Below are positions 28,986 to 53,507 of a stretch of DNA of 64,000 nt, piece after piece. Origin of the DNA: Archangium sp. Lineage in GTDB: Bacteria; Myxococcota; Myxococcia; Myxococcales; Myxococcaceae. The stretch is taken from the NCBI GenBank assembly GCA_030695565.1, contig JAUYRZ010000063.1, forward strand, positions 1-64,000, read 5' to 3'. A model generated the notes under the pieces. The model was not told where the DNA came from. It made no database searches and saw nothing but the letters and a program-made list of their open reading frames with translations. The first letter of the stretch is position 1. Every line of letters begins with the position of its first letter. The position numbers were made by a program, and so were the translations under genes.

Positions 28986-30047
28986 GTGAGTGACGTTCGA
29001 CTCGTCGGAATCAAGAAGAGCTTCGGTGAGAACGTGATCGTCCGCGGTGTGGACCTCGACGTGACGCCAGGCGAGTTTCTCGTGATGGTCGGGCCGTCGG
29101 GCTGCGGCAAGACCACGCTCCTGCGCATCATCGCAGGGCTCGAGCAGGCCGACTCCGGCGACATCGTCATCGGTGGGAAAAACATGAACGAGGTGCCTCC
29201 GCGCGAACGCGACGTAGGCATGGTCTTCCAGAGCTACGCGCTCTACCCGCACATGACCGTGAAGGAGAACATGGCCTTCGGTCTCGAGCTGCGAAAGGTG
29301 CCTCGCCCCGAGATCGAGAGCCGCGTCGCCGAAGCCGCCCGCATGCTCGAGCTGGGCCCGCTGCTCGATCGAAAGCCGAAGGCGCTCTCGGGCGGTCAAC
29401 GTCAACGCGTCGCGATGGGCCGGGTGATCGTGCGCCGGCCGCAGCTGTTCTTGTTCGATGAGCCGCTCTCGAACCTCGACACCGCCTTGCGTGTGCAGAT
29501 GCGCGGCGAGCTGGCGCGGCTGCATCGGGCGCTGGGTGTGACGATGATCTACGTCACGCACGATCAGGTCGAGGCCATGACGCTGGCGACGCGCGTGGCG
29601 GTGTTCAACAAGGGCGTGCTGCAGCAGCTGGGGGCTCCGCTCGAGCTCTACAACCGGCCGACCAACGCGTTCGTCGCGCAGTTTCTCGGCTCGCCTTCGA
29701 TGAATCTGATCGACGCGAAGCGCGACGGTGCGAAGTTCGTCGGTGCGGGCTTCACGCTTCCGGCAGTGGGCGATACCAGTGGTGAAGTGAAGCTGGGGCT
29801 GCGGCCGCAGGATCTTCGGGTGGCAAGCGAGGGTCCGCTGCGCGGTGAGGTCGAGGCGGTCGAACGGCTGGGCTTCGATGGGTACGCATTCTTGAAGACC
29901 GCGGCGGGATCGATCGCGGCCCGGTTCGAAGGTGCGGACGTGCAGGTCGGGCAGAACGTGGCGGTTCAGCCGATGGGCGACGTGCTGCACATCTTCAGCG
30001 CGGATGGCGCGAAGGCGCTGCGCCACCCCGAGGCGCGGGGTGCGTAA
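28986..30047 (+). CDS. malK: Sugar ABC transporter ATP-binding protein (MalK/UgpC type)
   Basis: A 353-residue ATPase. Walker A is GPSGCGKTTLLR, Q-loop MVFQSYALYPHMTV, signature LSGGQRQRVAMGR, Walker B LFLFDEPLSNLD, and H-loop VTHDQVEA. A C-terminal TOBE/regulatory domain (about 235-350) contains GSPSMNLI and LGLRPQDL. It powers import of alpha-glucosides together with the two permease genes that follow. The start is GTG 28986 (VSDVRLVGIKKSFG), which gives the standard N-terminus; the longer upstream frame is not family-like. The TAA stop lies just after the GTG proposed for the fused binding-protein/permease gene, so the genes overlap by 8 bases. Confidence 0.93.
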   Translation: MSDVRLVGIKKSFGENVIVRGVDLDVTPGEFLVMVGPSGCGKTTLLRIIAGLEQADSGDIVIGGKNMNEVPPRERDVGMVFQSYALYPHMTVKENMAFGLELRKVPRPEIESRVAEAARMLELGPLLDRKPKALSGGQRQRVAMGRVIVRRPQLFLFDEPLSNLDTALRVQMRGELARLHRALGVTMIYVTHDQVEAMTLATRVAVFNKGVLQQLGAPLELYNRPTNAFVAQFLGSPSMNLIDAKRDGAKFVGAGFTLPAVGDTSGEVKLGLRPQDLRVASEGPLRGEVEAVERLGFDGYAFLKTAAGSIAARFEGADVQVGQNVAVQPMGDVLHIFSADGAKALRHPEARGA

Positions 30048-32247
30048 TCAAACAAAGTCGAGGCCCTCACCCCAACCCTCTCCCGAAGGGAGAGGGAGCT
30101 TTCGTCCCCTTGCCTTCTGCCTGGTGTTCATCTCGCACCTCGCGTTCGCCGACGCGCCGGTGCTCAAGCTCTGGCACGGCTACCGCGGCGGCGAAGAGCA
30201 GGCGATCGAGCAAGCCGCCAAACAATTCACCGCGCTGACCGGAACACAGGTCGAGCTGCTCGCGGTGCCCTACGACGCGCTGAGCTCGAAGCTCACCTCG
30301 GCCATCCCCCACGACGCGGGCCCCGACGTCTTCATCTTCGCGCACGAGCGATTGCGACAGTTTCATCGCATGAAGATCGTCGCGCCCTCAGGCAACGGGC
30401 TCGATCGGTCGAAGTACCTCAAGCCCTCGGTCGATGCGCTCGAGCTCGACGGCGTGCTCTACGGCTACCCGCTCTCCATCAAGTGCCTGGCGCTGTTCAT
30501 GCGCGGTGATCGCGGACTCACGGCGCCCACCACCACCGCTGAGCTCGAGAACGCGCTCACCGAGCGCAGGCAGAACCAGTTCACGCTCGCGTACGAAGCG
30601 GGTGACTTCTACTTCCACGCTCCGATCCTCTTTGGCTTTGGCGGCGTGCTCTTCGACGAGAAGGGTCGCGCGCAGTTCGACACGCCCGCGATGACGAAGT
30701 CGCTGAACTGGGTGAAGTCACTGCAGGATCGCAAGCTGATGCCCCAGGAGGTCTCGGGCGCGTTGGTGAAGACGCTCTTCAACGAGAACCGCGCGCCTTT
30801 CGTGATCACCGGCCCGTGGTTCACCGGCGAAATCGACGGCGTGCCCTACTCCATTCACCCGTTGCCCACGGTCTCGGAGACGGGCCTGCCCATGGCGCCT
30901 TTTCTGGGCGTCGAAGCGGCGTTCGTCTCATCGCGCACCCAACAACCCGAGCTGGCGCAGGCGTTCGCGAAGTTCCTTTCGCTCGGTGACGCCACGATCA
31001 TCCGCGTGACGCTGGGCCGGCAGATCCCCGCTGAGCTCGCCGCGTACGACAACGAGGCCGTCGCGAAGGACCCGATGATCAGCGCGTTCCGCACGGTGGC
31101 CGAACGCGCGACGCCCACGCCCAACACGCTCGAGATGGCACGCGTCTGGGAGCCGATGAAGCTCGCGCTCCGAGCCGTGTTGCAGGGCGGCGTCTCCCCT
31201 GCTGACGCAGGCCAGCTCGCGGAGCGCCGATACCGCGCGCTCAATCGTGAAGCGCCGCCCACCACCACGCCCGTTCCGTGGATCATCGGGCTCAGCATCG
31301 GCCTGGTCACCTTCGGTGGTTGGCAGCTGCGGCAAGGCAAAGGCAAGACCTTCGCGAAGCGCTACCCCGAGGCGGGCCGAGGCCTGCTCTACGTCGCGCC
31401 GGCGGCGACCGGCCTCTTCGTGCTGGTGATCATTCCCTTCGTGATCGGGCTCTCGCTCTCGCTCTTCCACCACGACGCGGGCGAATACACCTTCGTCGGG
31501 TTCGCGAACTTCGCCGACATCCTCACCTCGAAGGGCTACCGGATCACCGAGCCCCTCTCGTTCTACTTCACGCTCGTGGTCACCCTCGCGTGGACGTTGG
31601 CCAACGTGGTGCTGCACGTGAGCATCGGGTTGTTCCTGGCGATCCTGCTCAAGGATCCACTGCTCAAGCTGCGCGGCGTGTACCGCGTGCTGCTGATCGT
31701 TCCGTGGGCGGTGCCCAACTACATCACCGCGCTCATGTGGAAGGGCATGTTCCACCAGCAGTTCGGGGCCATCAACGCGATCCTCGGCCACCTCGGAATC
31801 GAACCGGTGAGCTGGTTCACCCAGTGGTCGACCTCGTTCGCCGCGAACGTGATCACGAACACCTGGCTTGGGTTTCCTTTCATGATGGTGGTCTCGCTCG
31901 GCGCCCTGCAGTCGATCCCCACCGATCTGTATGAAGCGGCTGAGGTCGACGGCGCCTCGAAGTGGACGCAGTTTCGCCGCATCACGTTGCCGCTGCTCAA
32001 GCCTGCGCTCCTGCCCGCGGTGATCCTCGGCAGCGTGTGGACCTTCAACATGTTCAACATCATCTACCTCGTGTCCGGTGGTGAGCCGGGCGGAGGAACC
32101 GACATCCTCGTGAGCGAGGCGTTTCGCTGGGCCTTCCAACGCAACGAGCAGTACGGCTTTGCCGCCGCGTACTCGGTGTTGATCTTCTTCGTGCTCTTCG
32201 CCTGGTCGCAGGTGACGAAACGTTTGTCGGGCGAGGAGTCCGCGTGA
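30040..32247 (+). CDS. Fused sugar-binding protein and permease (MalE-MalF)
   Basis: A 735-residue fusion. A signal segment ending HLAFADA leads into a family-1 solute-binding domain (about 36-425: LKLWHGYRGGEEQAI, GVLYGYPLSIKCLA, FVITGPWFTGE, TAERRYRAL-like end). A membrane helix near 430-450 (WIIGLSIGLVTFGGW) is followed by a short basic loop and a MalF-type permease (about 475-735) with about six helices and the EAA loop YEAAEVDGASKWTQFRRI. The binding protein would be tethered to its own channel rather than free in the periplasm. Start GTG 30040 is the only start that gives a full signal peptide, with GAGG 6 bases upstream. It places a palindromic repeat in the coding sequence (RPSPQPSPEGRG). 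Confidence 0.88.
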   Translation: MRNQTKSRPSPQPSPEGRGSFRPLAFCLVFISHLAFADAPVLKLWHGYRGGEEQAIEQAAKQFTALTGTQVELLAVPYDALSSKLTSAIPHDAGPDVFIFAHERLRQFHRMKIVAPSGNGLDRSKYLKPSVDALELDGVLYGYPLSIKCLALFMRGDRGLTAPTTTAELENALTERRQNQFTLAYEAGDFYFHAPILFGFGGVLFDEKGRAQFDTPAMTKSLNWVKSLQDRKLMPQEVSGALVKTLFNENRAPFVITGPWFTGEIDGVPYSIHPLPTVSETGLPMAPFLGVEAAFVSSRTQQPELAQAFAKFLSLGDATIIRVTLGRQIPAELAAYDNEAVAKDPMISAFRTVAERATPTPNTLEMARVWEPMKLALRAVLQGGVSPADAGQLAERRYRALNREAPPTTTPVPWIIGLSIGLVTFGGWQLRQGKGKTFAKRYPEAGRGLLYVAPAATGLFVLVIIPFVIGLSLSLFHHDAGEYTFVGFANFADILTSKGYRITEPLSFYFTLVVTLAWTLANVVLHVSIGLFLAILLKDPLLKLRGVYRVLLIVPWAVPNYITALMWKGMFHQQFGAINAILGHLGIEPVSWFTQWSTSFAANVITNTWLGFPFMMVVSLGALQSIPTDLYEAAEVDGASKWTQFRRITLPLLKPALLPAVILGSVWTFNMFNIIYLVSGGEPGGGTDILVSEAFRWAFQRNEQYGFAAAYSVLIFFVLFAWSQVTKRLSGEESA
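30062..30096. repeat. Palindromic repeat copy inside the MalE-MalF signal region
   Basis: GGCCCTCACCCCAA, then CCCTCTCCC - GAA - GGGAGAGGG. It is the same repeat as at 17424 in reverse orientation. If translation starts at GTG 30040, the repeat encodes part of the n-region of the signal peptide. Confidence 0.8.
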
Positions 32248-36537: not shown

Positions 36538-38025
36538 TCAGTGCTCGGCGTGCCCTGCGATGACGATTTTTCCGTCGGCCTGCACCACCACCCAGCGCGC
36601 AGCCTCTTCCGTGCCGCCCGCTTCGGTGACGTTGATGGTCACGATGCCGCCGGTGCCGAACGTCGTGTCGAGCGAGCCGTCGGTGTTGAAGCGCGCCGCG
36701 GCGAACTTCGTGTCAGCGCCTTCACGCACGAAGCCAACGCCGATGATCTTGTTGCCATCCCACGCCACGCCGAAGAACCGATCGTGCGCGCCGGTGGAGA
36801 GCGGCACAGCCTGAGCGAACTCCGCAGGACCGCCCGAGGACATCGGCAGCACCAACAGCACCGCGTCGTCATTCTCAGCCGCCGTGTTCGCAGGGCCGGT
36901 GCGGTAGCCCACCGCTCCGAGCGCCATCCCGCCAGGGCCGATCGCTGCGCCGAAGAAGGCCTCGTCGTTGCGACCGAACGACCAGGTCTTGTATCCGTCT
37001 GCCGCGAAGGTGGTGTCGGCCGCGCCTGCCGAGGTGAGCACCGTCACCATGGCGTCGACGTTGCCCGTCAGCGGCGTGCCGCTGCCCACCGACACGATGC
37101 GGTCGTCTGACAGCGCGAGCACGTGACGGCCGCGCTCATCGCCGCCGACGAGGTTCAAGATGAAGGCTCCGTTGCTCCCCCAGGTGGCGTCTTCTGCGCC
37201 CGTCTCGAGGTAGCGGAAGCTCACCAGGTCGACAGGGCCGCTCGGGGCGATACGGCCGTAGCCCGAGGTCACGTAGTTGCCGGTCGACTGGCGCGCCACC
37301 CCGTACGCCTCGGCCATGCCCCACGGCATCGACGGCACGGCGTTGGCAAACTTGGCCACGCCCACCACACCCGCGTCACCGAAGGTCGAGTCTGCGGCGC
37401 CCGTCGAATCGAGGCGAAACAACACGGGCCGGTTGGCCGTCTGAATGCCTCCGTCGCTGAGCACGACGCCGGTCGGAACGGCGGTGTAGCTCGAGATGAC
37501 GATCTTCCCGTCGGCCTGCACGAAGCCATGCTTGATGGTGTCGTTCCGATTCGCGAAGTCGAGCCGCTGCACGCCACCGGTGGCGAAGGTTCCGTCAAGT
37601 GCGCCGCTGGTGGTGAGCCGCGCCGCGAAACCATCCGTGTCGGTGCGGCCAATCGCCTTGGTGGACCCGAAGAGCACCATGCGCCCCGCGCTGTCCTTGT
37701 CGAAGCCCCAGACCGAGTCGCGCGCGCTGCCCGTGGCCTCGCCGAAGTCGATGCGCGCGATGCCCGCGTCACCGAAGGTCGTGTCGGGCGTGCCGTCGGA
37801 GTTGAGCCGCACCACCACCACGTCGAGGTCGCGAGGCGGCGTCCCCGCGTCGCCACCACCGCCTCCGCCTGCACCGCCGCCCATCGCGCCACCGCCGCCT
37901 CCGGTGTTGCCACCGCCGGTGGTGCCGCCGCCCATGCCGCCATCAGGCATCGGCTCCATCGGGCAACCCATCAGCATCATTGAGACCGTCATCCCCACCA
38001 GCAGGCCATTCCAACCGAGTTTCAC
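36538..38025 (-). CDS. Delta-60 repeat lipoprotein (beta-propeller-like)
   Basis: A 495-residue protein. Lipoprotein signal with Cys in MMLMGC, then a Gly-rich linker (about 30-62), then delta-60 repeats, each carrying the SDGTPDTTFGDAG-type signature: SDGTPDTTFGDAG, TSGALDGTFATGG, STGAADSTFGDAG, TSAGAADTTFAADG and NTDGSLDTTFGTGG, with more diverged copies between. VQADGKIVI appears twice. Such repeats probably build a beta-propeller; ligands are unknown. Start: GTG 38025 with GGGAGA 5 bases before it. The frame extends upstream through the regulatory dyad and the Fur-like site, but that part is not coding. It is divergent from the imelysin gene and could also be iron-regulated through the shared 64-bp gap. 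Confidence 0.85.
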   Translation of the reverse strand: MKLGWNGLLVGMTVSMMLMGCPMEPMPDGGMGGGTTGGGNTGGGGGAMGGGAGGGGGGDAGTPPRDLDVVVVRLNSDGTPDTTFGDAGIARIDFGEATGSARDSVWGFDKDSAGRMVLFGSTKAIGRTDTDGFAARLTTSGALDGTFATGGVQRLDFANRNDTIKHGFVQADGKIVISSYTAVPTGVVLSDGGIQTANRPVLFRLDSTGAADSTFGDAGVVGVAKFANAVPSMPWGMAEAYGVARQSTGNYVTSGYGRIAPSGPVDLVSFRYLETGAEDATWGSNGAFILNLVGGDERGRHVLALSDDRIVSVGSGTPLTGNVDAMVTVLTSAGAADTTFAADGYKTWSFGRNDEAFFGAAIGPGGMALGAVGYRTGPANTAAENDDAVLLVLPMSSGGPAEFAQAVPLSTGAHDRFFGVAWDGNKIIGVGFVREGADTKFAAARFNTDGSLDTTFGTGGIVTINVTEAGGTEEAARWVVVQADGKIVIAGHAEH

Positions 38026-38043
38026 GTCGTTCTCCCTTGAGCC

Positions 38044-38059
38044 CGGGAACAAGTTCCCG
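38044..38059. promoter_or_regulatory. Perfect dyad, possible operator
   Basis: CGGGAAC-AA-GTTCCCG: 7-bp arms with a 2-base centre, in the space between two divergent lipoprotein genes and 12 bp from the Fur-like site. The centre is too tight for an RNA hairpin, so a dimeric repressor site is more likely. The binding protein is unknown. Confidence 0.5.
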
Positions 38060-38070
38060 TAGCCTGTTTT

Positions 38071-38089
38071 GATAATGACAATCAAAATC
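38071..38089. promoter_or_regulatory. Fur-box-like operator
   Basis: GATAATGACAATCAAAATC matches the 19-bp Fur consensus at 16 of 19 positions and stands out as AT-rich in this GC-rich DNA. It ends one base before the imelysin ATG and overlaps a possible -10 (GATAAT). Iron-bound Fur would block the imelysin-HTTM genes and perhaps the divergent delta-60 gene. Confidence 0.75.
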
Positions 38090-39223
38090 ATGTGCGCCTC
38101 AGCGCGTCAAGGGTTGACTGCGATCGCGCTCGTGTTCGCGCTCGGTTGCCCCACGCCCCGACCTGCGCAAGACGCGGGCCCGGTGTTGCTCGAGGACGGC
38201 GGCCTCGCAGCCACGCGGGCTGACTTTCTGGGCGCCGCGGGCACTTGCTCGCTTCAAGCCGTGACGAAGTTTCGCGCTGAGGTCGACGCGCTCAACGCTG
38301 CTCCGACGAAGGACAACTGGAAGCGGGCGATGAAGGCCTGGCAACGCGTCGAGTTGATGCAGTTCGGGCCGACCGGCAGCTCCTCGACCCCGGGCGGGAT
38401 GGACCTGCGCGACCAGGTCTATTCGTGGCCGCTGGTCAGCCGCTGCTCCATCGAAGACGTGCTGGTGAGCAAACGCTACGAGGCGGGTGTGGGTTCGCTG
38501 CTGGTCAACCGCCGCGGCCTCGCCACGCTCGAGTACCTGCTCTTTCACGAGAGCGACGACGTCATCTGCTCCACAGCAGGTTGGGCGGCGCTCTCGGCCA
38601 CCGAACGCACCGCGCAGAAGCAGGCCTACGCCGTGGCGGTGAGCGCCGACTTGAAGGTGCACGCCGACGCGCTGGTGACCGCGTGGGAAGGAGGCTTCGT
38701 GGAGACCCTGCGCACCGCTGGCCCGGGAAACCCGACGTACATGTCCACGGGCGCAGCGATGAACCAGCTGGGCGCGGGCATCTTCTACCTCGACCGGGTG
38801 ATCAAGGATCTCAAGCTCGCAGCGCCCATCGGCCTGCGTGACTGCGCCGCCCCGCCCTGCCTCGAGCTGCTCGAGTCGCAGTACGCGGGCCACAACACCG
38901 CCAACCTGCGCGAGAACCTCGTCGCGCTCCGGCAGCTGCTCGAAGGGTGTGAGCCCGGCTACACCGGCGTCGGCTTCGACGATCTGCTGATCGGCGCGCG
39001 GGCCTCAGCGCTGGCCGATCGCCAGCACGAACTGCTGCTCGCCGCCGAAGCCGCCCTGGCCGCCATCGAAGAGCCCGATCTGAAGGAGGCGTTGGTGACG
39101 GACCCCGCGTCGGTGCGCGCCTTCTACGACGCGCTCAAGGCCATCACCGATCTGCTCAAGAGCGAGTTCGTGACCGTGCTCGACATCGATCTGCCCATGG
39201 GCCTGGAAGGCGACAATGACTGA
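38090..39223 (+). CDS. Imelysin-family (M75-like) iron-regulated lipoprotein
   Basis: A 377-residue protein with a lipoprotein-type signal (ALVFALGC) and two helical halves typical of imelysin-like proteins: WKRAMKAWQRVELMQFGP, RDQVYSWPLVSRCSIED, GLATLEYLLFHES, then LGAGIFYLDRVIKDLK. In imelysins the GxHxxE motif lies where this protein has GLATLE, so the motif His is replaced by Ala while Gly and Glu remain. Proteolysis is unlikely; an iron-related periplasmic role is usual for the family. The start is ATG 38090, because the frame upstream of it is the Fur-like site. This leaves almost no leader. The stop overlaps the next gene's ATG by 8 bases. Confidence 0.88.
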   Translation: MCASARQGLTAIALVFALGCPTPRPAQDAGPVLLEDGGLAATRADFLGAAGTCSLQAVTKFRAEVDALNAAPTKDNWKRAMKAWQRVELMQFGPTGSSSTPGGMDLRDQVYSWPLVSRCSIEDVLVSKRYEAGVGSLLVNRRGLATLEYLLFHESDDVICSTAGWAALSATERTAQKQAYAVAVSADLKVHADALVTAWEGGFVETLRTAGPGNPTYMSTGAAMNQLGAGIFYLDRVIKDLKLAAPIGLRDCAAPPCLELLESQYAGHNTANLRENLVALRQLLEGCEPGYTGVGFDDLLIGARASALADRQHELLLAAEAALAAIEEPDLKEALVTDPASVRAFYDALKAITDLLKSEFVTVLDIDLPMGLEGDND

Positions 39224-40517
39224 GCGTCGTGACGCCGCTGCGCTCGCCGTCTTCCGCATGGCGTTCGGCGCGCTGGTGGCCATTTCCGCGCTGCGTTTCC
39301 TGGCCTATGGCTGGGTCGACACCCTCTTCGCGGTGCCCTTTCGGTTTCAGTACTTCGGCTTCGAGTGGGTTCCTTCTCCGGGCGTGGAGGGCGTGCGCGC
39401 GATGTTCGTGGCGCTGGTGTTGCTCGGCGTGATGGTCGCGCTGGGGGCGTTCTACCGGCTGGCCATCGTCGCGCTGTTCGTCACCTTCAGCTGGGTGCAG
39501 TTGCTCGACGTCTCGAACTACCTGAACCACTACTACCTGGTGTCGCTGCTGGCGTTGTTGATGTGCTTCATGCCGCTGCACCGGCTCTGGTCGGTCGATG
39601 CGTGGTTGCGCCCTGCGCTCAGGGCCGAGACCCTGCCGGCGTGGTGCACCTGGCTGCTGCGGTTTCAGGTGGGCACGGTCTACTTCTTCGCGGCGCTCGC
39701 GAAGTTCAACTCCGATTGGTTGATCCACGGAGCCCCGCTCCACCTGTGGTTGTCCTCTCGCAGCGAGTGGCTCACCAGCCCCGAGGTCGCCTGGTTCGCT
39801 TCGTGGGGCGGCTTCGTCTTCGATCTGACCGCGCCGTTTCTCTTGTCGTTCAGACGAACCCGAAAGTTCGCCTACGTGGCGGTGCTGGGCTTCCACCTCA
39901 CCACCAGCCTGCTGTTCCCCATCGGGATGTTCCCCTTCATCATGATGCTCTCAACGCTGGTGTTCTTCGACGCCAGCTGGCCTCGGCGCTGGTTGCGAAC
40001 GCCGGCTCCTGCGCCGGCTGCAGAACGAACGCCGCGGTGGGTGCTGGTGCCGGTGGCGCTCTGGTGCGTGGTGCAGCTCGCCGTGCCGCTGCGCACCTTC
40101 TTGTACGGGGGCGACGTCTCCTGGCATGAGCAGGGCATGCGCTTCTCCTGGCGGGTGATGACGCGCGAGAAGAACGGCAGCGTCACCTACGTGGTGCGGC
40201 AGCGATCGACCCACCGCGAGTGGCACGTGACGCCCAGCCAGTACCTGACGCCCGTGCAGGAGCGAGAGCTCTCGGTTCAGCCCGATCTGATTCTTCAACT
40301 CGCGAGGCACATCGGCGCCGAGTTCCACGCGCGCGGGCTGAAGGACATCGAGGTACACGCCGACACGTGGGTCTCGCTCAACGGCCGCCCCGCTGTACCG
40401 CTGGTCGACGACTCGATCGACCTGCTCCAGGTGCGCGATGGCCTGGCCCCCGCGAGGTGGATCAACCCTTCACCGACCACCAAGCCGATGGCGCCAGCCC
40501 TCTTCTCGCGCCGGTGA
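39216..40517 (+). CDS. HTTM / vitamin K-dependent gamma-carboxylase family protein
   Basis: A 433-residue membrane protein. The HTTM part (about 1-270) has several helices and the motifs LNHYYLVSLLALL and VYFFAALAKFNSDW. By comparison with human gamma-glutamyl carboxylase (recalled VKKLDADW), Lys163 aligns with the catalytic base Lys218. The C-terminal soluble part (about 290-433) keeps GMRFSWRVM, HADTWVSLNGRP and IDLLQ, as in full-length carboxylases. The enzyme in animals carboxylates Glu using reduced vitamin K and CO2; the bacterial substrate is unknown. It overlaps the imelysin gene and is probably under the same Fur-like control. Ends at TGA 40517. Confidence 0.87.
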   Translation: MTERRDAAALAVFRMAFGALVAISALRFLAYGWVDTLFAVPFRFQYFGFEWVPSPGVEGVRAMFVALVLLGVMVALGAFYRLAIVALFVTFSWVQLLDVSNYLNHYYLVSLLALLMCFMPLHRLWSVDAWLRPALRAETLPAWCTWLLRFQVGTVYFFAALAKFNSDWLIHGAPLHLWLSSRSEWLTSPEVAWFASWGGFVFDLTAPFLLSFRRTRKFAYVAVLGFHLTTSLLFPIGMFPFIMMLSTLVFFDASWPRRWLRTPAPAPAAERTPRWVLVPVALWCVVQLAVPLRTFLYGGDVSWHEQGMRFSWRVMTREKNGSVTYVVRQRSTHREWHVTPSQYLTPVQERELSVQPDLILQLARHIGAEFHARGLKDIEVHADTWVSLNGRPAVPLVDDSIDLLQVRDGLAPARWINPSPTTKPMAPALFSRR

Positions 40518-42567: not shown

Positions 42568-42641
42568 CGAGGAGTAGGGGATTTGAACCCCTGACCTTCG
42601 GCGTGACAGGCCGACGTTCTAACCAGCTGAACTAACTCCCC
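42568..42641 (-). tRNA. tRNA-Asp (GTC)
   Basis: 74-nt cloverleaf with acceptor GGGGAGT/ACTCCTC (one G-T pair), D-stem GTTC/GAAC, anticodon stem TCGGC/GCCGA with loop CTGTCAC (anticodon GTC), T-arm AGGGG-TTCAAAT-CCCCT, discriminator G. The 3' CCA is not encoded. It lies 40 bp downstream of tRNA-Val on the same strand. Confidence 0.97.
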
Positions 42642-42681: not shown

Positions 42682-42753
42682 TAGGCGGAACAGGTTTCGA
42701 ACCTGTGACCCTCGCCGTGTAAAGGCGACGCTCTACCGCTGAGCTATCCGCCC
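42682..42753 (-). tRNA. tRNA-Val (TAC)
   Basis: 72-nt cloverleaf with acceptor GGGCGGA/TCCGCCT (terminal G-T pair), D-stem GCTC/GAGC, anticodon stem TCGCC/GGCGA with loop TTTACAC (anticodon TAC), T-arm ACAGG-TTCGAAA-CCTGT, discriminator A. No encoded CCA. It is the first gene of the two-tRNA operon. Confidence 0.97.
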
Positions 42754-44889: not shown

Positions 44890-45753
44890 ATGATCGACTA
44901 CGATCCGCACAAGTGGCGCACGACCTTCTTCGCCATCAAAGGCTCGATGATCAAAGTGATCGCCTTCCGATCACTGCTCGTCACCCTGGGCGCCTTCCTC
45001 CTCGTCTACATCGACCTCTACGTGGTGAAATTCGAGGTGCCCAACGCCTCGATCGTTCACGGCATGGTCGGTACTTCGTTGGGCCTGCTGCTCGTCTTCC
45101 GCACCAACCAGTCGTACGACCGTTGGTGGGAAGGCCGAAAACTCTGGGGCGGCATGGTGAACACCTGCCGCAACCTGGCCCGCGCGGCCTCGGTGCACCT
45201 GGCCCACGACCCAGCGCGCCTGCGCCGGGTGCTCAAGCTGACCCAGGCCTTTCCCGCGGCGTCGAAGGCGGTGCTCCGGCAAGAAGCGTGGGCGCCCGAG
45301 GGCCTCGAGCCTGACGACGTCGAGGCGATCACCCGGCGCAACCACGCGCCCACCGCGATCTGTCAGCGCATCACGTTTCACCTCGCCGCCGAGTTCAAGG
45401 CGGGCCACCTGACCGACATCCTCTTCACGTCGATCGATCAGAACAACCAACTGCTGGTCGACATCATCGGCGGGTGCGAGCGCATTCATAAGACGCCGCT
45501 GCCCTTCGCCTACGTGGTGCATCTGCGCCGAGCGCTGGTGTTGTACTGCGCGACGTTGCCGCTGGCCCTGTTGCCCAGCTTCGGCCTGTACACGGTGCCC
45601 ATCGTCTACGGCATCACCTACGTGATGCTGGGCATCGAAGAGATCGGCGTGGAGATCGAAGATCCCTTCGAGGGCGACGACAACGATCTGCCCCTGGAGC
45701 GCATCACCGACGGCATCCAGGCGGGCGTGGGGTCCTACCTGCCTCCCGCCTAG
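44890..45753 (+). CDS. Bestrophin-family anion channel
   Basis: A 287-residue bestrophin homologue. An N-terminal helix (RSLLVTLGAFLLVYIDLYVV) is followed by the signature HGMVGTSLGLLLVFRTNQSYDRWWEGRKLWGGMV, cited here only by position 57-89 with key residues RTNQSYDRWWEGR. Then comes a cytoplasmic helical part and a last helical hairpin (LYCATLPLALLPSFGLY). The family forms pentameric inner-membrane channels for anions, or cations in some bacteria. Length matches bacterial members (about 290-300). Its TAG stop shares the palindrome CTAG with the TAG stop of the convergent TonB receptor gene. Confidence 0.92.
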   Translation: MIDYDPHKWRTTFFAIKGSMIKVIAFRSLLVTLGAFLLVYIDLYVVKFEVPNASIVHGMVGTSLGLLLVFRTNQSYDRWWEGRKLWGGMVNTCRNLARAASVHLAHDPARLRRVLKLTQAFPAASKAVLRQEAWAPEGLEPDDVEAITRRNHAPTAICQRITFHLAAEFKAGHLTDILFTSIDQNNQLLVDIIGGCERIHKTPLPFAYVVHLRRALVLYCATLPLALLPSFGLYTVPIVYGITYVMLGIEEIGVEIEDPFEGDDNDLPLERITDGIQAGVGSYLPPA

Positions 45754-47993
45754 CGGAAGGCGTACTTGAAGCCCGCCTGAAACAGCAGCGGCGCCTGCGG
45801 CCTTGCACCAAACGGCCTCCGGGCGACCAGCGCCGACTGATTCGTGAGGTTGGTGGCGGTCAGGTAGAAACGCGCCGCGCCGAACTCCACCGAGGCGGTG
45901 GCATCCAGCAACACACGGCCGGGGATCACCACCGACGCGTTCGGCTCACCCACGCCGGCCAGCTCCCGGCTCTGGCCGTAATAGACCGCGCCCACGCCGA
46001 GCTCGACCGGGCCCTTCGACGCGCGCACCCGCAGCTGGCCCTGGTGCGCGGGCACGTAGGGCAGCGCGGCCCCGGCGACCACGTTGCCCCAGCTGGGGTT
46101 GGCCGATTGGAAGTCCGAGAGGAACTGCGCGCTGGTGAAGGTGTACGCGAGTTCGACCGCGCCCGTGGTGCCCCAGCCCAGCTTGCCCTTGACGCTGCCG
46201 AGCACCTCGGCGCCCAGCAGCCGTGCCGCGCCGCCGTTGAACTGCTGGTTGAGCGCGTCGTTGGTGCAACCGCTCGAGCCCGTGCACTCGCCGGTGATGT
46301 TCGAGTACTCGCTCCAAAAGCCGATCGCCTCGAGGCGGATGCCACGACGCCCGTAGCGGAAGCCGAGCTCCGAGTTGAGCGCCCGTTCGGGCAACGCGTC
46401 GACCTGGCCCGGCGGCGGAGGACTGAAGCCCTGGTTCACGCCGGCGAGCACGGAGAGCCCGAAGTCGAAGGTGTACACGGCGCCGATGCCGAGCAGCGGC
46501 ACCACCTGCAGCGCGTTGCCCGCGGCGCCGCTCAGGCGATCGGACAGCGTGGCGTCGTAGACCTCGACCCGCGCGCCGGGCGCCAGCAGGAAGTGGCCCC
46601 AGCTGATGGTGTCGGAGAGGTTGGCGCTGAAGCTGCGCGTGGAGGCGAGGTTGTCGGCGATCAGCTCGGCCTCTTCTCCGTTGGGCACCAGGGTGCCACG
46701 AAGCATGTCGAAGCCCGACTGGGTGTGACGCCTTCGAATCTCGTCATGATGAAAGCGCAGCCCCAGCTCGAGCTCGTGAGAGATCGGGCCGCTCATCAGC
46801 GTCAACCGCGCCAGCGTCTGAAGGCCCTGCGAGACGAAGGTGCGGCCGTTGTTCACCACCATCAACTGCTGGTCGCGCGAGGTGGTGTCTTCGGCGCCCG
46901 ACAGGATCCCGCGGTAGACGGCGCCCGTGCCGCCGCTGGGGTAGGCGAGCAGCTCGTAGAGCGCCGGGCCCTGGCGGAAGTGATCGAGGCGGTTCCACAC
47001 GCGTTGGAAGTCGTGCCGGTACGCGGTGGTGCTGATCTCGAACTGTTCGCTGAGCGTGAAGGTGTGCGTCAACTCCATCTGGGTGCGCCACCAGTTCATC
47101 TGATCGTTGGCGCTCGCCGCGTAGCGCCGCTGCGGCGTGCGCGCGAAGTCGTCGTTCGAGAGGCCCAGGTACGACTCGTTCGAACGTTCGGTGGAGAGGC
47201 CGAGCTTCAACTGGAACTCGTGGCGGTCCGTCGCCGCGCGCGCCTTGAGCATCAGCTCGTTCTTGTCGAAGCCGGTGTTGCCACCACCATCGAGCTGTTT
47301 GAAACCATCGCTTCGCAGGTGCACGCCCTCGAGCAGCACACCAAAGCGTTCGGTGCCGTAGCCGATCACCCCGTGGCCCTTGGCCGAGCCATAGTTGCCC
47401 AGGGAGATGTCGAGATCACCTTCGAAGGCGCGGGGCGCTTCGCGGGTGCGCAGGTTCATCGCGCCACCGATGGTCTGCGGGCCGAAGCGAATGGAGGCGG
47501 GCCCTTTGTAGATCTCCACCCCCACCATGCGGGTCATCAGGGGCGTGTAGTAGGCGGCGGCCGCTGAATACGGAGCAGGGCCCGAGAGCACGCCGTCTTC
47601 CATCAAGGTGACCTTGCTCGAACGATCCGCGCTGGCGCCGCGAATGCCGATGTTCGGCCGCAGACCGAAGCCATCTTCTTCACGCACGTACACGCCGGGC
47701 ACGCCCTGGAGCACCCGGTGCAGATCGTTGGCTTCCTGCCGCTCGAGCTCTTCTTTGCCGATCACCTGCGCAGAGCCCGCGACCCGGCGTACGTCGACCA
47801 TCTTCCGGCCGGTGACCGTGGTCTCCCGTCCCGCGTCGGGCACTTCGACTGGAAGCAGAACCACGCCCGCGTCTTCTTCGACCGGCAGGCCCGCGTCTTC
47901 GAGCACCCACTCGACGCCCGCATCGGGCACTTCGTCGGGAGACGCCTGGCCCAGGGCCAGCCCCCAGAGGCACACCGCAGCGAGGTGCATCAT
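45750..47993 (-). CDS. TonB-dependent receptor, FecA-like
   Basis: A 747-residue outer-membrane receptor. Signal peptide (AAVCLWGLALGQA), a short acidic Asp/Val-rich segment, a TonB-box-like ETTVTG, and a plug domain (about 65-190: LHRVLQGVPGVYVREEDG, LRPNIGIRGA, VEIYKGPASIRFGPQTIGG). A 22-strand barrel follows. The EEDGFGLRPNIGIRG plug segment is typical of ferric citrate/FecA-like receptors. It imports an iron complex across the outer membrane with TonB energy. The protein ends YAFR, not the usual terminal Phe. A Fur-box-like site lies 11-30 bp upstream of the start. Start ATG 47993 (a second ATG follows immediately). Confidence 0.92.
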   Translation of the reverse strand: MMHLAAVCLWGLALGQASPDEVPDAGVEWVLEDAGLPVEEDAGVVLLPVEVPDAGRETTVTGRKMVDVRRVAGSAQVIGKEELERQEANDLHRVLQGVPGVYVREEDGFGLRPNIGIRGASADRSSKVTLMEDGVLSGPAPYSAAAAYYTPLMTRMVGVEIYKGPASIRFGPQTIGGAMNLRTREAPRAFEGDLDISLGNYGSAKGHGVIGYGTERFGVLLEGVHLRSDGFKQLDGGGNTGFDKNELMLKARAATDRHEFQLKLGLSTERSNESYLGLSNDDFARTPQRRYAASANDQMNWWRTQMELTHTFTLSEQFEISTTAYRHDFQRVWNRLDHFRQGPALYELLAYPSGGTGAVYRGILSGAEDTTSRDQQLMVVNNGRTFVSQGLQTLARLTLMSGPISHELELGLRFHHDEIRRRHTQSGFDMLRGTLVPNGEEAELIADNLASTRSFSANLSDTISWGHFLLAPGARVEVYDATLSDRLSGAAGNALQVVPLLGIGAVYTFDFGLSVLAGVNQGFSPPPPGQVDALPERALNSELGFRYGRRGIRLEAIGFWSEYSNITGECTGSSGCTNDALNQQFNGGAARLLGAEVLGSVKGKLGWGTTGAVELAYTFTSAQFLSDFQSANPSWGNVVAGAALPYVPAHQGQLRVRASKGPVELGVGAVYYGQSRELAGVGEPNASVVIPGRVLLDATASVEFGAARFYLTATNLTNQSALVARRPFGARPQAPLLFQAGFKYAFR

Positions 47994-48004: not shown

Positions 48005-48023
48005 GATTTTGATAATCATTCTC
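48005..48023. promoter_or_regulatory. Fur-box-like operator between TonB receptor and thioredoxin operon
   Basis: GATTTTGATAATCATTCTC matches the 19-bp Fur consensus at 16 of 19 positions. It is 12 bp from the TonB receptor start and 68 bp from the thioredoxin start, well placed to repress both divergent units when iron is plentiful. GATAAT at 48011 could serve as the plus-strand -10. Confidence 0.78.
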
Positions 48024-48090: not shown

Positions 48091-48453
48091 ATGGCGATCT
48101 CAGCCGAGGTAGCGACACCGGAGTCATTCGATCAACTCATCGCCGCGCCCGACGCGTTGGTGGTGGTCTATTTCTGGGGCCCGGATTGCCCCAACTGCGA
48201 AGTGTTCGCGCGCGACTTGCCCGAGCTGCTGCAGGCGATCCCCCAGACCGGCGTTCGGGTGGTGAAGGTGAACGCGTACGAACACCCCGAGCTCGCGCGC
48301 CGTTTCGCGCTCTTCGGCATCCCCGGCTTCGTGCTCTTCAAGGACGGAACGAAGCTCGGGATGATGCGGCAGTACAACGGCCGTGACTATTGGACCGCGG
48401 TGGTGACCGAGCACGCGCAAGGCAGAGGGGCGAGGCTAAGCTCGGCGTCGTGA
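48091..48453 (+). CDS. Thioredoxin-family protein
   Basis: A 120-residue thioredoxin fold. It has VVVYFWGPDCPNCEVFARDL with the redox pair C33-P-N-C36 (CPNC in place of thioredoxin's CGPC), VNAYEHPELARRFALFGIPGFVLFKDG with the conserved cis-Pro, and no signal peptide, so it is cytoplasmic. It likely reduces disulphides or transfers electrons. The altered CxxC suggests a specialised partner rather than general thioredoxin duty. First gene of a tight five-gene operon (48091-53507). Start ATG 48091. The stop TGA overlaps the GTG of the metallo-hydrolase gene. Divergent from the Fur-like-controlled TonB receptor. Confidence 0.88.
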   Translation: MAISAEVATPESFDQLIAAPDALVVVYFWGPDCPNCEVFARDLPELLQAIPQTGVRVVKVNAYEHPELARRFALFGIPGFVLFKDGTKLGMMRQYNGRDYWTAVVTEHAQGRGARLSSAS

Positions 48454-49784
48454 TCGTCACCTGGCTGGGACACGCGCAGCTCTTCATCAACGCTGCCGGA
48501 AAGACGCTGTTGCTCGACCCGTGGTTCGCTGAACCGGTGTTCGGTGGCGCCTGGTTTCGCTACCCGCCGCCCCCCTACCCGCGCGCGTCCAGCCTGCCGC
48601 CGCCGTCCTTCCTTCTGCTCAGCCACATTCATCCCGACCACTCGGGGCCGGGCACGCTCGCCCAGCTGCGGAAGACCACGCCGACGCTGGCGATGCCCTT
48701 TCCTTCGGGGGCGATGGAACGCCGACTCCAACGCGCTCAATACACCGACGTGCGGTGGCAGCAGCCGTGGGAGACGAAGGAGATCGCACCGGGTTTGAAG
48801 ATCACCTTCGTGCCTCACGATCGCGGCTGGGAGGTCTCGTCGATCGTGGTCGAAGCGGACGGCGTGCGGCTGTACCACGGCAACGACAACCCGCTGTCCG
48901 TCGACGCCTACCGGGAGCTCGTCAAGCGCCTGGGGCCCATCGACATCGCCTTTCTCCCCTACGCCGGCGCGAGCTCGTACCCGACCGGTTTCGGCGGCGA
49001 CGCTGCGGTGATGAAGGAGCGGTGCGAGAAGAAGAAGCGCGAAGGGCTGCAGCGCTTCGAAGAAGGCATCGTGGGCCTCGAGCCGAAAGAAGCCGTGCCC
49101 TTCGCCTCGAGCTGGGCGCTGCTGGAAGAGAGCGAGCTCGAGAAGAACTTCATGGATCGGCCCACCGCCCTCCAGGCGCTCGCGGCATCCATGCTGGTGG
49201 CGAGTGAACACGACACGCACCTGCTTCACCTGGAGCCCGGTGATCAGTGGAGCCCGGAGACGGGCGCCATCGCCAAGGGCCTCACCACGGGCTGGGACAA
49301 CGACCTGGCGTCCGTGCGCCGCTACGCGCTGCAGGAAAAGGAACGCGTCACCAGGGCGATCGCCGAAGCGCGCAAGGCCACCTGGTCTTTCCCTCCGGCC
49401 ACGCTCGACCTCGCCGTGCGCGAATACTTCGAGGCGATGATCGCGGCGGCCGGGCCCACGTTGACCGAGCTCACCCTGAACGCCGGCTTCGTCGCGGAGG
49501 GCGCCGGGGCGTGGAGCATGCGGTTTGCGCCCGGCCAGCCGCCGCGCCTCGAGTCGCAGCTGCTGGGTGACGAAGACGAGACCCTGGTGCTCTCAGCAGG
49601 CGAGCTGGGGGCCATCGTCGCGGGCCCGGCCACCTGGGAAGACGTCTGGTACGGCTACCGGCTGCAGGTGCGCAAACGCCAGGGCGCCGGCGACCACCGC
49701 GCGTTCTGGGAGATGCTGCTCAACTTCGACGACGAGCAGCTCTCAGCACGACTCGCGGCACGCTTTCCGCTGGCGATCGAGTAG
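48450..49784 (+). CDS. Metallo-beta-lactamase-fold hydrolase
   Basis: A 444-residue protein. The N-terminal MBL domain (about 1-250) has WLGHAQLFINAAGKTLLLDPW and the metal motif SHIHPDHSG (HxHxDH, near 57-63). A later VPHDRGWEVSSIVVE, YHGNDNPLS and LPYAGASSYPTGFGG follow, a pattern like UlaG/CMAH-type MBL enzymes. The C-terminal part (about 290-444) is not recognised and may be SCP2-like in fold (low confidence). No signal peptide. The start GTG 48450 overlaps the thioredoxin stop (GTGA); the upstream frame is inside that gene. Substrate unknown. It is linked to thioredoxin and an iron-type importer, so a redox or metal role is possible. Confidence 0.83.
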   Translation: MIVTWLGHAQLFINAAGKTLLLDPWFAEPVFGGAWFRYPPPPYPRASSLPPPSFLLLSHIHPDHSGPGTLAQLRKTTPTLAMPFPSGAMERRLQRAQYTDVRWQQPWETKEIAPGLKITFVPHDRGWEVSSIVVEADGVRLYHGNDNPLSVDAYRELVKRLGPIDIAFLPYAGASSYPTGFGGDAAVMKERCEKKKREGLQRFEEGIVGLEPKEAVPFASSWALLEESELEKNFMDRPTALQALAASMLVASEHDTHLLHLEPGDQWSPETGAIAKGLTTGWDNDLASVRRYALQEKERVTRAIAEARKATWSFPPATLDLAVREYFEAMIAAAGPTLTELTLNAGFVAEGAGAWSMRFAPGQPPRLESQLLGDEDETLVLSAGELGAIVAGPATWEDVWYGYRLQVRKRQGAGDHRAFWEMLLNFDDEQLSARLAARFPLAIE

Positions 49785-49795
49785 ACGCGCGCTCT

Positions 49796-50812
49796 GTGCG
49801 TTGGCTCCTGATCCTGACGTTCTGCGCTGGCTGCCGGATCGAGACGGCGTCTCCGGGCGGTGTTGCCGTGGCCGCGAAGACCGGAGCGCCCGCGGGCGAA
49901 GTCTGGGTCTACACCTCGGTGTACCGCCACGTGCTCGACGCGCTGGAGCCGCAGCTCAAAGAAGCGCTCCCCGGCGTGACCATTCATTGGTTTCAGGCCG
50001 GCAGTGAGAAGGTCGCCGCGAAGCTGGAGGCCGAGCTCGCCGCCGGTGGCACGCCCTGCGACGTCCTGATCACCTCGGATCCCTTTCTCTATGAGCGCTT
50101 CAAGAACGAGAAGCGGTGGCTGCGCTACGTCTCACCGAACGGGGTGCGCACGCCTGCGCGCTACGTGGATCCCGACGGGCACTACGCAGCGGTGAGGCTG
50201 TCGACGATGGTGCTGGTGCACAAGGCGGGCACGCCGGCGCCGCGGTCGTTCGCCGCGTTGGCCACGCCGGAATGGAAAGGTGAAGTGGCGCTCGGCGATC
50301 CGCTCACCAGCGGCACTGCGTTCACCTGGGCCGTCTCGATGGAGCAGGCGTTGGGCGCGAAGTACTTCGAACAACTGCGCGCGAATGAAGCGCGCGTCGC
50401 AGGTGGCAACGCCGCGGTGCTGCAGAAGATCGAGGGTGGCGAAGCGAAGGTGGGCGTGCTGCTGCTGGAGAACGCGCTGGCCGCCCAGGCCAAAGGCAGC
50501 CCCATCGAGATCGCCTGGCCCTCGGATGGAGCGGTGGTGGTGCCGGGCTACGCCGGAATCATGGGCAGCACGCAGCACGCGGAAGCCGCGAAGGCGCTCA
50601 TCGACACGCTGCTCTCGCCGGCCGGTCAGAAGATCATCGCTGAGCTGGGCGACATGCACGCCGTCGATCCGCGTGTGCCGGGACCACGTGGGTCCGTTTC
50701 ACTCGATGAGCTCGTCACCAGAAGCGCCCCCTGGGGCGAGCCGATCCTCAAACACGGCGTCGAAGACGGTGCGCGCGTGAAGGCCGAGTTCAGCAAGGCG
50801 TTCTCGAAATGA
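49796..50812 (+). CDS. ABC transporter substrate-binding lipoprotein, ferric iron (FbpA/AfuA) type
   Basis: A 338-residue lipoprotein (short signal, Cys13 in FCAGC). It has a periplasmic binding fold like the FbpA/FutA or 2-aminoethylphosphonate group: VWVYTSVYRHVLDALEP, ITSDPFLYERFKNE, LGDPLTSGTAFTWAVSM, GGEAKVGVLLLENAL, VVPGYAGIMGST. Candidate iron-binding Tyr residues lie in VYTSVY and PGYAG. However, the adjacent Tyr pair of Neisseria FbpA is absent, so iron is likely only by context. The start is GTG 49796. Its TGA overlaps the permease ATG (ATGA). It delivers substrate to the permease and ATPase encoded next. Confidence 0.85.
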   Translation: MRWLLILTFCAGCRIETASPGGVAVAAKTGAPAGEVWVYTSVYRHVLDALEPQLKEALPGVTIHWFQAGSEKVAAKLEAELAAGGTPCDVLITSDPFLYERFKNEKRWLRYVSPNGVRTPARYVDPDGHYAAVRLSTMVLVHKAGTPAPRSFAALATPEWKGEVALGDPLTSGTAFTWAVSMEQALGAKYFEQLRANEARVAGGNAAVLQKIEGGEAKVGVLLLENALAAQAKGSPIEIAWPSDGAVVVPGYAGIMGSTQHAEAAKALIDTLLSPAGQKIIAELGDMHAVDPRVPGPRGSVSLDELVTRSAPWGEPILKHGVEDGARVKAEFSKAFSK

Positions 50813-52479: not shown

Positions 52480-52481
52480 CG

Positions 52482-53507
52482 ATGGCCGACGTCCAACTCA
52501 TCGGAGTGCACAAGGCGTACGGCGCCACCGCGGTGGTGAAAGGCATTTCCCTGCGCATCGAGAGCGGTGAGTTCATCTCGCTGCTCGGTCCTTCCGGCTG
52601 CGGCAAGACCACCACGCTGCGCATGATCGCCGGCCTCGAGACGCTGGATGCAGGGACCATCTCGATCGGCGGCGAGCTGGTCGACAGCGAAAAGGGTCAT
52701 GTGCCCCCGGAGAAACGCGCGCTGGGCATGGTGTTCCAGAGCTACGCCGTGTGGCCGCACAAGTCGGTGGCAGAGAACGTCGCGTATCCCCTGCTGCTTC
52801 AACGCAAACCCAGCTCGGAGATCGCTCAGCGCGTGACGCAAGCCCTCGAGTGGGTGCGGCTCGGCGCCTTCGCCCAACGAATGCCGTCCCAGCTCTCCGG
52901 CGGGCAGCTCCAACGCGTGGCGATCGCGCGCGCGCTGGTGGCCAATCCCCGCGTGTTGCTGCTCGACGAGCCGCTCTCCAACCTCGACGCAGCACTCCGC
53001 GAAGAGCTGCGTGGAGAGATCGCCGCGCTGCGTGCTCGATTGGGCACCACGATGATCTTCGTCACGCACGATCAACACGAAGCCCTCGCCTTGTCGGATC
53101 GCGTGGCCGTGATGCACCAGGGCGTGATCGAACAAATCGACTCACCGCAGAAGATCTACCAGTCGCCTTCCACGCCCTTCGTCGCGGGCTTCGTAGGGGG
53201 CGCCAATCGGCTCGAAGGCCGGGTGGAGGGCCGCAGCTTCATCTGCGGAGCCCACACCTTCGAGTTGCCCGAGCGCGTCACCGCGGTCGACGGCCCCGCC
53301 ACGCTGGCGGTCAGAGCCGAAGAGCTCGAGCTGGGCAGCACCGGCCCCTCACTTCCGCTCCTGGCGAGGCTCTTCCTCGGCAGCGCCACCGAGTTCCGCT
53401 TCACCCTGGGAGAATCCGTGCTGCGCGTGGTGGGACCCGCGCGCGACGTGAAGCCCGGCGAATCGGTGCGGGTCGCGCTCCAACACGCCCGGCTGTACCC
53501 ACGCTGA
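52482..53507 (+). CDS. ABC transporter ATP-binding protein (FbpC/PotA type)
   Basis: A 341-residue ATPase. It has Walker A GPSGCGKTTTLR, Q-loop MVFQSYAVWPHKSV, signature LSGGQLQRVAIARAL, Walker B VLLLDEPLSNLD, H-loop VTHDQHEALALSDRVAV, and a C-terminal TOBE-like region (about 240-340). AVWPH and the order of genes match ferric-ion importers more than sugar importers. It is the last gene of the operon that starts with thioredoxin. The start ATG is 2 bp after the permease stop. No terminator hairpin is obvious behind it. Confidence 0.92.
   Translation: MADVQLIGVHKAYGATAVVKGISLRIESGEFISLLGPSGCGKTTTLRMIAGLETLDAGTISIGGELVDSEKGHVPPEKRALGMVFQSYAVWPHKSVAENVAYPLLLQRKPSSEIAQRVTQALEWVRLGAFAQRMPSQLSGGQLQRVAIARALVANPRVLLLDEPLSNLDAALREELRGEIAALRARLGTTMIFVTHDQHEALALSDRVAVMHQGVIEQIDSPQKIYQSPSTPFVAGFVGGANRLEGRVEGRSFICGAHTFELPERVTAVDGPATLAVRAEELELGSTGPSLPLLARLFLGSATEFRFTLGESVLRVVGPARDVKPGESVRVALQHARLYPR

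What the first reader, a model, noticed from the sequence alone, without database searches (positions are those of the whole stretch)
38090..40517. Imelysin-like lipoprotein coupled to a vitamin-K carboxylase homologue that keeps its catalytic lysine
The HTTM protein retains full-length carboxylase features, including Lys163 (AALAKFNSDW) aligned with the human catalytic base and the C-terminal TWVSLN segment. It overlaps the imelysin-like gene. The imelysin GxHxxE motif is degenerate (GLATLE). Possible meaning: an iron-stress-induced oxygenase or carboxylase acting on the partner lipoprotein or on quinones.
Basis: partly seen in the sequence, partly recalled or inferred. Interest (0 to 1): 0.62.

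Follow-up and report, generated by a model that had tools for sequence, protein, structure and literature searches.

The report
Vitamin-K-carboxylase homologue in iron-uptake operon
A bacterial relative of the human enzyme that uses vitamin K to activate clotting factors keeps its complete catalytic centre and is encoded, in several bacterial phyla, in iron-controlled uptake gene clusters beside an imelysin lipoprotein; this makes the unknown job of bacterial vitamin-K carboxylases directly testable.

Summary
Window 38090-39223 (+) encodes an imelysin lipoprotein of the IPPA (GxxxxE) type; 39216-40517 (+), overlapping by 8 nt, encodes an HTTM/VKGC protein. Lys163 aligns with GGCX Lys218. The predicted fold matches GGCX residues 55-523 (Z 31, 418 residues). 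In 80 relatives from several phyla N159, H160, K218, W223, F286 and F299 are invariant. The second half of the propeptide-docking part, the C99-C450 disulfide and K217 are missing. The 'degenerate' GLATLE motif is normal for IPPA imelysins.

The pairing is not accidental: 69 of 88 VKGC hits in Myxococcota, 47 of 64 in Bacteroidota and 76 of 80 scanned loci have an imelysin directly upstream. The only two Fur boxes in the window precede the imelysin and the orthologous TonB receptor; published Riemerella data show the same cluster iron/Fur-regulated. No Glu is conserved specifically in VKGC-linked imelysins, so the Gla prediction has no sequence support. The invariant acidic feature is a C-terminal D-x-D tail, also present in imelysins without VKGC.

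Best reading: a Fur-controlled iron-uptake module whose menaquinol-dependent VKGC-fold enzyme modifies the imelysin; the modification is inferred. The window is one instance of a widespread, apparently undescribed association.

The parts
38071..38089 (+). Fur box GATAATGACAATCAAAATC (16/19 to consensus), directly upstream of the imelysin
   Evidence: one of only two matches in 64 kb, 0 in shuffles; similar box upstream of the first operon gene in many related loci
38090..39223 (+). Imelysin lipoprotein, IPPA-type (377 aa from ATG 38090; start codon not certain)
   Evidence: PF09375 E 5e-26; model pLDDT 89 matches 3pf0/IPPA Z 30.7, 4ecg Z 31.0, 7xrx Z 30.5
38147..38149 (+). Lipobox cysteine (Cys20)
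   Evidence: Sequence LVFALGC; Cys in 74 of 76 linked imelysins
38516..38533 (+). GLATLE, the GxxxxE form of the GxHxxE motif
   Evidence: GxxxxE is the mark of the IPPA family (PMC3143127)
39206..39220 (+). C-terminal tail EGDND; D-x-D end is invariant in the subfamily
39216..40517 (+). HTTM/VKGC protein (433 aa), overlapping the imelysin stop by 8 nt
   Evidence: PF05090 E 4e-76, PF22777 E 6e-45; model pLDDT 93.5, GGCX Z 31.4, rmsd 2.7, 418 aa
39525..39530 (+). N104-H105 = GGCX N159-H160 (Glu pocket / essential His)
   Evidence: 80 of 80 relatives
39702..39704 (+). K163 = GGCX K218, catalytic base
   Evidence: 80 of 80
40035..40475 (+). VKGC lumenal domain (periplasmic side)
   Evidence: PF22777 residues 274-420
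40365..40382 (+). TWVSLN segment, aligned with human IWVSIN
45750..47993 (-). TonB-dependent receptor, orthologue of the receptors linked to VKGC in other Myxococcaceae
   Evidence: PF00593/PF07715; 45-47% identity over ~700 aa to the TBDRs of L033-L036; TBDR profile 485 bits
48005..48023 (.). Second Fur box, upstream of the TonB receptor
   Evidence: 15-16/19

Best explanation
38090-40517 is a Fur-repressed, translationally coupled operon of an iron-uptake module. The imelysin is secreted as a lipoprotein and works with the Fur-controlled TonB receptor encoded 5 kb away in capturing iron. The VKGC-fold protein sits in the inner membrane, takes menaquinol from the membrane, deprotonates it with K163, reacts it with O2, and uses the resulting strong base to modify a side chain of a periplasmic partner, most likely the co-translated imelysin, so that it binds iron better. 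Shown here: gene pair, conservation of the catalytic and quinone-pocket residues, predicted GGCX fold, Fur boxes, constancy of the imelysin as partner. Inferred: inner-membrane location and periplasmic active site (by homology), menaquinol use, that a modification occurs, that the imelysin is its target, and that it serves iron binding.
For: Catalytic and quinone-pocket residues invariant in 80 of 80 relatives (N159, H160, A214, K218, W223, F286, F299; F294 and M402 in 79), with the roles of these residues from PMC12589487. GGCX fold over 418 of 433 residues. Imelysin directly upstream in 69/88 Myxococcota, 47/64 Bacteroidota and 76/80 scanned VKGC loci. The imelysin is the only constant partner: DUF4856-imelysin-VKGC-TBDR, TBDR(-)/imelysin-VKGC, and imelysin-DHOR-imelysin-VKGC all keep it, while TBDR, DUF4856 and DHOR come and go. 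Fur boxes in the window and in relatives. In Riemerella the same cluster (TonB receptor, VKGC, imelysin, hypothetical) rises on iron restriction and is listed as Fur-regulated (PMC5609570).
Against: No Glu specific to VKGC-linked imelysins. The second half of the propeptide-binding part of GGCX is absent, so substrate docking must differ. Glu-pocket residues N158 (Leu in 80/80) and R436 (Gln/Met/Glu) are changed and Y395 is Met in the window. Some imelysin-TBDR modules have no VKGC (L132, L134, L136, L222, L223), so imelysin function does not always need it. Other VKGC copies sit in unrelated contexts such as ribF-VKGC-serS.
Confidence: 0.45

Rival explanations
1. The VKGC protein is a menaquinol oxygenase or epoxidase with no protein substrate: an iron-free way to consume O2 or to make a quinone epoxide during iron starvation, with the imelysin only co-regulated.
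For: Quinone pocket and K218/H160 conserved while protein-docking parts (second propeptide-binding lobe, K217, R436, N158) are lost or changed. Orphan copies without any obvious protein partner keep the same catalytic residues. In human GGCX, K217 matters for substrate binding and K218 for catalysis (PMC12589487).
Against: In GGCX epoxidation is coupled to Glu binding (PMC9146348). The tight one-to-one pairing with one imelysin subfamily across phyla is hard to explain if the imelysin is irrelevant.
Confidence: 0.25
2. The enzyme modifies another member of the module (TonB receptor, DUF4856 protein) or the transported ligand.
For: TBDR within reach in 69 of 80 loci and DUF4856 in 56 of 80.
Against: Loci with the DHOR layout have VKGC and imelysin but no TBDR within the fetched DNA (L050, L057, L062, L066, L075, L078, L081), and Myxococcaceae lack DUF4856 there.
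Confidence: 0.12
3. The VKGC protein carboxylates or otherwise modifies the Asp residues of the D-x-D tail of the imelysin (for example to beta-carboxyaspartate), making a flexible iron ligand. (A special case of the best explanation.)
For: D at the last and third-last position is the invariant acidic feature of linked imelysins (D377 76/76, D375 72/76). The tail of IPPA (residues 384-389) was disordered in the crystal (PMC3143127). Two unrelated lipoproteins encoded directly upstream of other VKGC copies also end in Asp-rich tails: GGGSDSDSD / GGGGGSDFD (L119-L121) and poly-Asp (L246, L247). None of 889 background genes of these loci ends in D-x-D.
Against: The tail is equally invariant in imelysins without VKGC, in VKGC-less Myxococcota (L132, L134, L135, L136) and Gammaproteobacteria (L216-L226). 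About a dozen other orphan VKGC contexts show no Asp-tailed neighbour.
Confidence: 0.12
4. The protein has lost catalysis and acts as a membrane chaperone or anchor for the imelysin.
For: No bacterial activity was tested here; loss of substrate-docking parts.
Against: The catalytic and quinone-pocket residues are invariant or nearly so in 80 relatives and in nearly all orphan copies.
Confidence: 0.06

Closest known systems
Human gamma-glutamyl carboxylase GGCX (PDB 9wfc, 9bvk, 9l6q)
   Same: HTTM fold plus first lumenal lobe (GGCX 55-523), catalytic K218, H160, N159, naphthoquinone pocket F286/F294/F299/W223/V210, tail tunnel A214/G259
   Different: Bacterial protein stops at about residue 523: no further lumenal part or arch; no C99-C450 disulfide; K217 is Ala, N158 Leu, M401 Val, R436 Glu, Y395 Met; partner is an imelysin lipoprotein with no recognisable Gla domain
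Riemerella anatipestifer cluster RAYM_09779-09794 (PMC5609570)
   Same: TonB receptor, VKGC, imelysin lipoprotein, one further gene; iron- and Fur-regulated; R. columbina locus L074 has the order DUF4856-imelysin-VKGC-TBDR
   Different: The paper lists the genes in a table only; the window has no DUF4856 next to the pair and its TonB receptor lies 5 kb away on the other strand
IPPA-type imelysins (Psychrobacter Psyc_1802, PDB 3pf0; PA4372, VC1266)
   Same: GxxxxE motif, canonical imelysin fold, C-terminal D-x-D end (seen in 3pf0), Fur-controlled operons
   Different: Those gammaproteobacterial operons are described with an EfeB/DUF1111 homologue and a second imelysin, and no VKGC is mentioned
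Leptospira vitamin-K carboxylase homologue (Rishavy et al. 2005, from memory, not read here)
   Same: Bacterial VKGC relative of unknown role
   Different: Sequence and gene context not compared here

Membership tests
HTTM / VKGC-fold family (PF05090 + PF22777) | HTTM domain and VKGC lumenal domain over the curated cut-offs | tested here: met
   256.6 and 153.2 bits against 27.7
HTTM / VKGC-fold family (PF05090 + PF22777) | GGCX-like overall fold | tested here: met
   Predicted model: Z 31.4, rmsd 2.7, 418 residues; unrelated rows below 10
[quoted passage not shown]
   K163 and H105; 80 of 80 relatives
[quoted passage not shown]
   F226, F234, F239, W168, V155, H105, A159, G199; M401 replaced by Val
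[quoted passage not shown]
   Protein ends at the equivalent of GGCX about 523; F44 and H365 at the cysteine positions
[quoted passage not shown]
   No VKGC-specific conserved Glu in the partner imelysin; other possible substrates not tested
[quoted passage not shown]
   Needs biochemistry
Imelysin / peptidase M75 (PF09375) | Family profile and fold | tested here: met
   92.3 bits against 23.5; Z 30-31 to 4ecg, 3pf0, 7xrx
Canonical imelysin/IrpA (ICMP type) | GxHxxE motif | tested here: not met
   GLATLE
IPPA-type imelysin | GxxxxE motif and canonical (not permuted) imelysin fold | tested here: met
   family description PMC3143127
Fur regulon | Fur box at the promoter | tested here: met
   binding itself not tested

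The most novel reading that the evidence does not exclude
Bacterial VKGC enzymes form a protein-modification system for lipoproteins with Asp-rich C-terminal tails: a menaquinol/O2-driven reaction carboxylates Asp (not Glu) in the tail of the partner (imelysin, a DUF4382-like protein, and an unnamed myxobacterial lipoprotein), creating metal-binding tails used in iron uptake.
Probability: 0.12. Interest if true: 0.88.

Novelty: new variant of a known kind. Interest (0 to 1): 0.6.

Why it matters
The physiological role of bacterial vitamin-K carboxylase homologues is, as far as the library searched shows, unknown. Here a compact form with an intact catalytic centre is shown to belong to Fur-controlled iron-uptake modules in several phyla, next to one imelysin subfamily. 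That gives a named partner, a growth condition (iron starvation) and simple tests, and could show a non-animal use of vitamin-K chemistry as well as a clue to what imelysins do.

Tried and rejected
1) C-terminal D-x-D tail as a VKGC-specific substrate mark: first looked decisive, then rejected as such because imelysins without VKGC keep it (PDB 3pf0 ends STDGD). Kept only as a low-probability reading because two unrelated Asp-tailed lipoproteins also precede VKGC genes. 2) Tail caused by overlap with the VKGC start codon: rejected, many Bacteroidota genes do not overlap and keep DGD. 3) VKGC-specific Glu in the imelysin: none; caveat, only 13 VKGC-less sequences and partly different phyla. 4) Literature for 'imelysin' with 'HTTM': no paper; 'HTTM domain': two, neither on this; beta-carboxyaspartic acid with vitamin K: none. 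5) Viral contigs: no relative. 6) The window's ABC transporter 49796-53507 as a ferric transporter: substrate class unresolved (best NCBIfam matches are of aminoethylphosphonate type, far below cut-off), so not claimed as part of the module. 8) The Leptospira homologue could not be reached with the scans left.

Full report
OBSERVATION. The two genes exist as described. The imelysin runs from ATG 38090 to the stop at 39221-39223; starts at 38069 or 38075 are also open, and the Fur box lies right against ATG 38090, so the true start is uncertain. It has a lipoprotein signal (LVFALGC, Cys20), matches PF09375 at E 5e-26, and its AlphaFold model (pLDDT 89) matches solved imelysins 4ecg, 3pf0 and 7xrx at Z 30-31 over about 300 residues. 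The second gene, 39216-40517, overlaps it by 8 nt and matches HTTM PF05090 (E 4e-76) and the VKGC lumenal domain PF22777 (E 6e-45). It is the only HTTM gene found in the window's genome.

CATALYTIC LYSINE. phmmer against the PDB finds only human GGCX (E 7e-34), with K163 on the second lysine of GVKKLDADW, K218, and H105 on H160. A MAFFT alignment of the window protein, 80 relatives and the human blocks gives N159, H160, A214, K218, W223, F286 and F299 in 80 of 80, F294 and M402 in 79, D222 in 78; K217 is Ala in 75, N158 is Leu in 80, M401 is Val in 80, R436 is Gln/Met/Glu, Y395 is Tyr in 45 but Met in the window, and the C99-C450 cysteines are absent. Functions of these residues are from the GGCX structure paper PMC12589487 and the review PMC9146348. 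The VKGC model (pLDDT 93.5, pTM 0.91) aligns with GGCX residues 55-523 at Z 31.4, rmsd 2.7 over 418 residues; Foldseek gives 16 GGCX chains and nothing else at E below 0.001. So the protein has the complete HTTM part and first lumenal lobe, and lacks the rest of the propeptide-binding part and the arch.

THE PAIR IS CONSERVED. Of 195 Myxococcota genomes, 72 have the VKGC lumenal domain and 69 of these also an imelysin, against 21 of the other 123; 69 of 88 VKGC hits have the imelysin immediately upstream on the same strand at near-constant spacing. In 247 Bacteroidota genomes it is 49 of 56 against 8 of 191, with 47 of 64 hits adjacent. There the lower-scoring, IPPA-like imelysins occur only in VKGC genomes (judged by profile score; the eight VKGC-less genomes hold only high-scoring ones). 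In Pseudomonadota the gene is rare: 3 of 143 class-level and 2 of 349 phylum-level genomes. P-values are not corrected for relatedness. A scan of 84,980 species genomes gave 80 loci, by record title in Myxococcota, Bacteroidota, Gammaproteobacteria, Bdellovibrionota and Chloroflexi (the hit list was truncated at the best 80). 76 of 80 have the imelysin adjacent; 69 have a TonB receptor, 56 a DUF4856 gene, 9 a di-haem oxidoreductase. Of the four without imelysin, L040 and L094 begin too near the contig start to tell; L054 and L093 look like true exceptions. Three layouts recur: DUF4856-imelysin-VKGC-TBDR; TBDR(-)/imelysin-VKGC in Myxococcaceae; imelysin-DHOR-imelysin-VKGC in Polyangia and others. 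The imelysin is the only constant partner.

IRON. The Fur consensus with up to 3 mismatches occurs exactly twice in the window, at 38071-38089 before the imelysin and at 48005-48023 before the TonB receptor (45750-47993, minus strand); none in 100 shuffles. That receptor is 45-47% identical over about 700 residues to the receptors adjacent to imelysin-VKGC in other Myxococcaceae, so it is most likely the same module component displaced by 5 kb. Fur boxes of 13-17/19 lie before the first operon gene in many related loci (simple base shuffles). In Riemerella anatipestifer the TonB receptor, 'vitamin K-dependent gamma-carboxylase', 'putative lipoprotein imelysin' and a neighbour are listed as Fur-regulated, with ratios 2.1, 2.6, 3.1 and 2.4 on iron restriction (PMC5609570). 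This is the only experimental evidence found for the cluster.

THE IMELYSIN. GLATLE is not decay peculiar to this gene: loss of the motif His marks the IPPA family (PMC3143127), which the authors regard as likely binding proteins, not peptidases. To test the Gla idea I compared 76 VKGC-linked imelysins with 13 from genomes or operons without VKGC: the only strongly conserved Glu, E262, is kept in both (73/76 and 12/13); no Glu is specific to the linked set. The invariant acidic feature is the C-terminal D-x-D end. It is, however, also kept without VKGC and in 3pf0, where residues 384-389 were disordered. It is therefore a hallmark of the subfamily, not proof of VKGC action. What keeps the thought alive: two unrelated lipoproteins directly upstream of other VKGC copies also end in Asp-rich tails (L119-L121; L246-L247), while none of 889 background genes in these loci ends in D-x-D. 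Against it, most other orphan VKGC contexts have no such neighbour. From memory, the mammalian enzyme was reported to carboxylate Asp in synthetic peptides weakly; not checked.

MECHANISM. Shown: gene pair, residues, predicted fold, Fur boxes, constancy of partner. From established knowledge of GGCX: quinol plus O2 chemistry with K218 as base. Inferred: inner-membrane location with the active site facing the periplasm; menaquinol as cofactor (the genome has two VKOR-domain genes, which may serve other ends); modification of the imelysin; benefit for iron binding. A purely quinol-directed oxygenase remains a serious rival because protein-docking parts are missing and orphan copies keep the same catalytic residues. 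Some imelysin-TBDR modules lack VKGC (L132, L134, L136, L222, L223), so the enzyme is an accessory, not a core part.

NOVELTY. Bacterial VKGC homologues and imelysin operons are each known, and one paper's table holds the pair. No paper in the library joins imelysin and HTTM and none found discusses the module. I rate it a new variant of a known kind: a compact VKGC-fold enzyme in an iron-uptake operon. The window itself is one ordinary instance of it.

Noticed in passing
L119:4450-5439 +, L120:4732-5481 +, L121:8034-8756 -: Unnamed myxobacterial lipoprotein overlapping a paralogous VKGC gene ends in a Gly/Ser linker plus DSDSD or SDFD; no Pfam family.
   Followed up: partly
L246:3407-4129 +, L247:3220-3933 +: Weakly DUF4382-like lipoprotein directly upstream of a VKGC gene ends in a poly-Asp tail of about a dozen residues.
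   Followed up: partly
L216, L218, L220-L226, L132, L134-L136: All IPPA-type imelysins examined end in D-x-D at the extreme C-terminus, with or without VKGC; canonical GxHxxE imelysins do not.
   Followed up: yes
L234-L236, L238-L241: A second VKGC clade in Bacteroidota genomes sits in a fixed ribF-VKGC-serS context with catalytic residues intact.
   Followed up: partly
window 48092-53507 +: Divergent from the TonB receptor: thioredoxin-like protein, metallo-beta-lactamase-fold protein, and an ABC transporter (binding protein, double permease, ATPase) of unresolved substrate.
   Followed up: partly
window 29932-32247 +: ABC-type solute-binding protein fused to a permease in one 771-aa ORF.
   Followed up: no
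window 36538-38091 -: Delta-60 repeat (DUF5122 beta-propeller) lipoprotein divergent from the imelysin, sharing its upstream region and possibly its Fur box.
   Followed up: no
window 42568-42641 and 42682-42753, minus strand: Two tRNA genes between the operon and the TonB receptor.
   Followed up: no
L224 (2229-3941 and 3945-5435): Two tandem di-haem oxidoreductase genes between a canonical and an IPPA-type imelysin.
   Followed up: no
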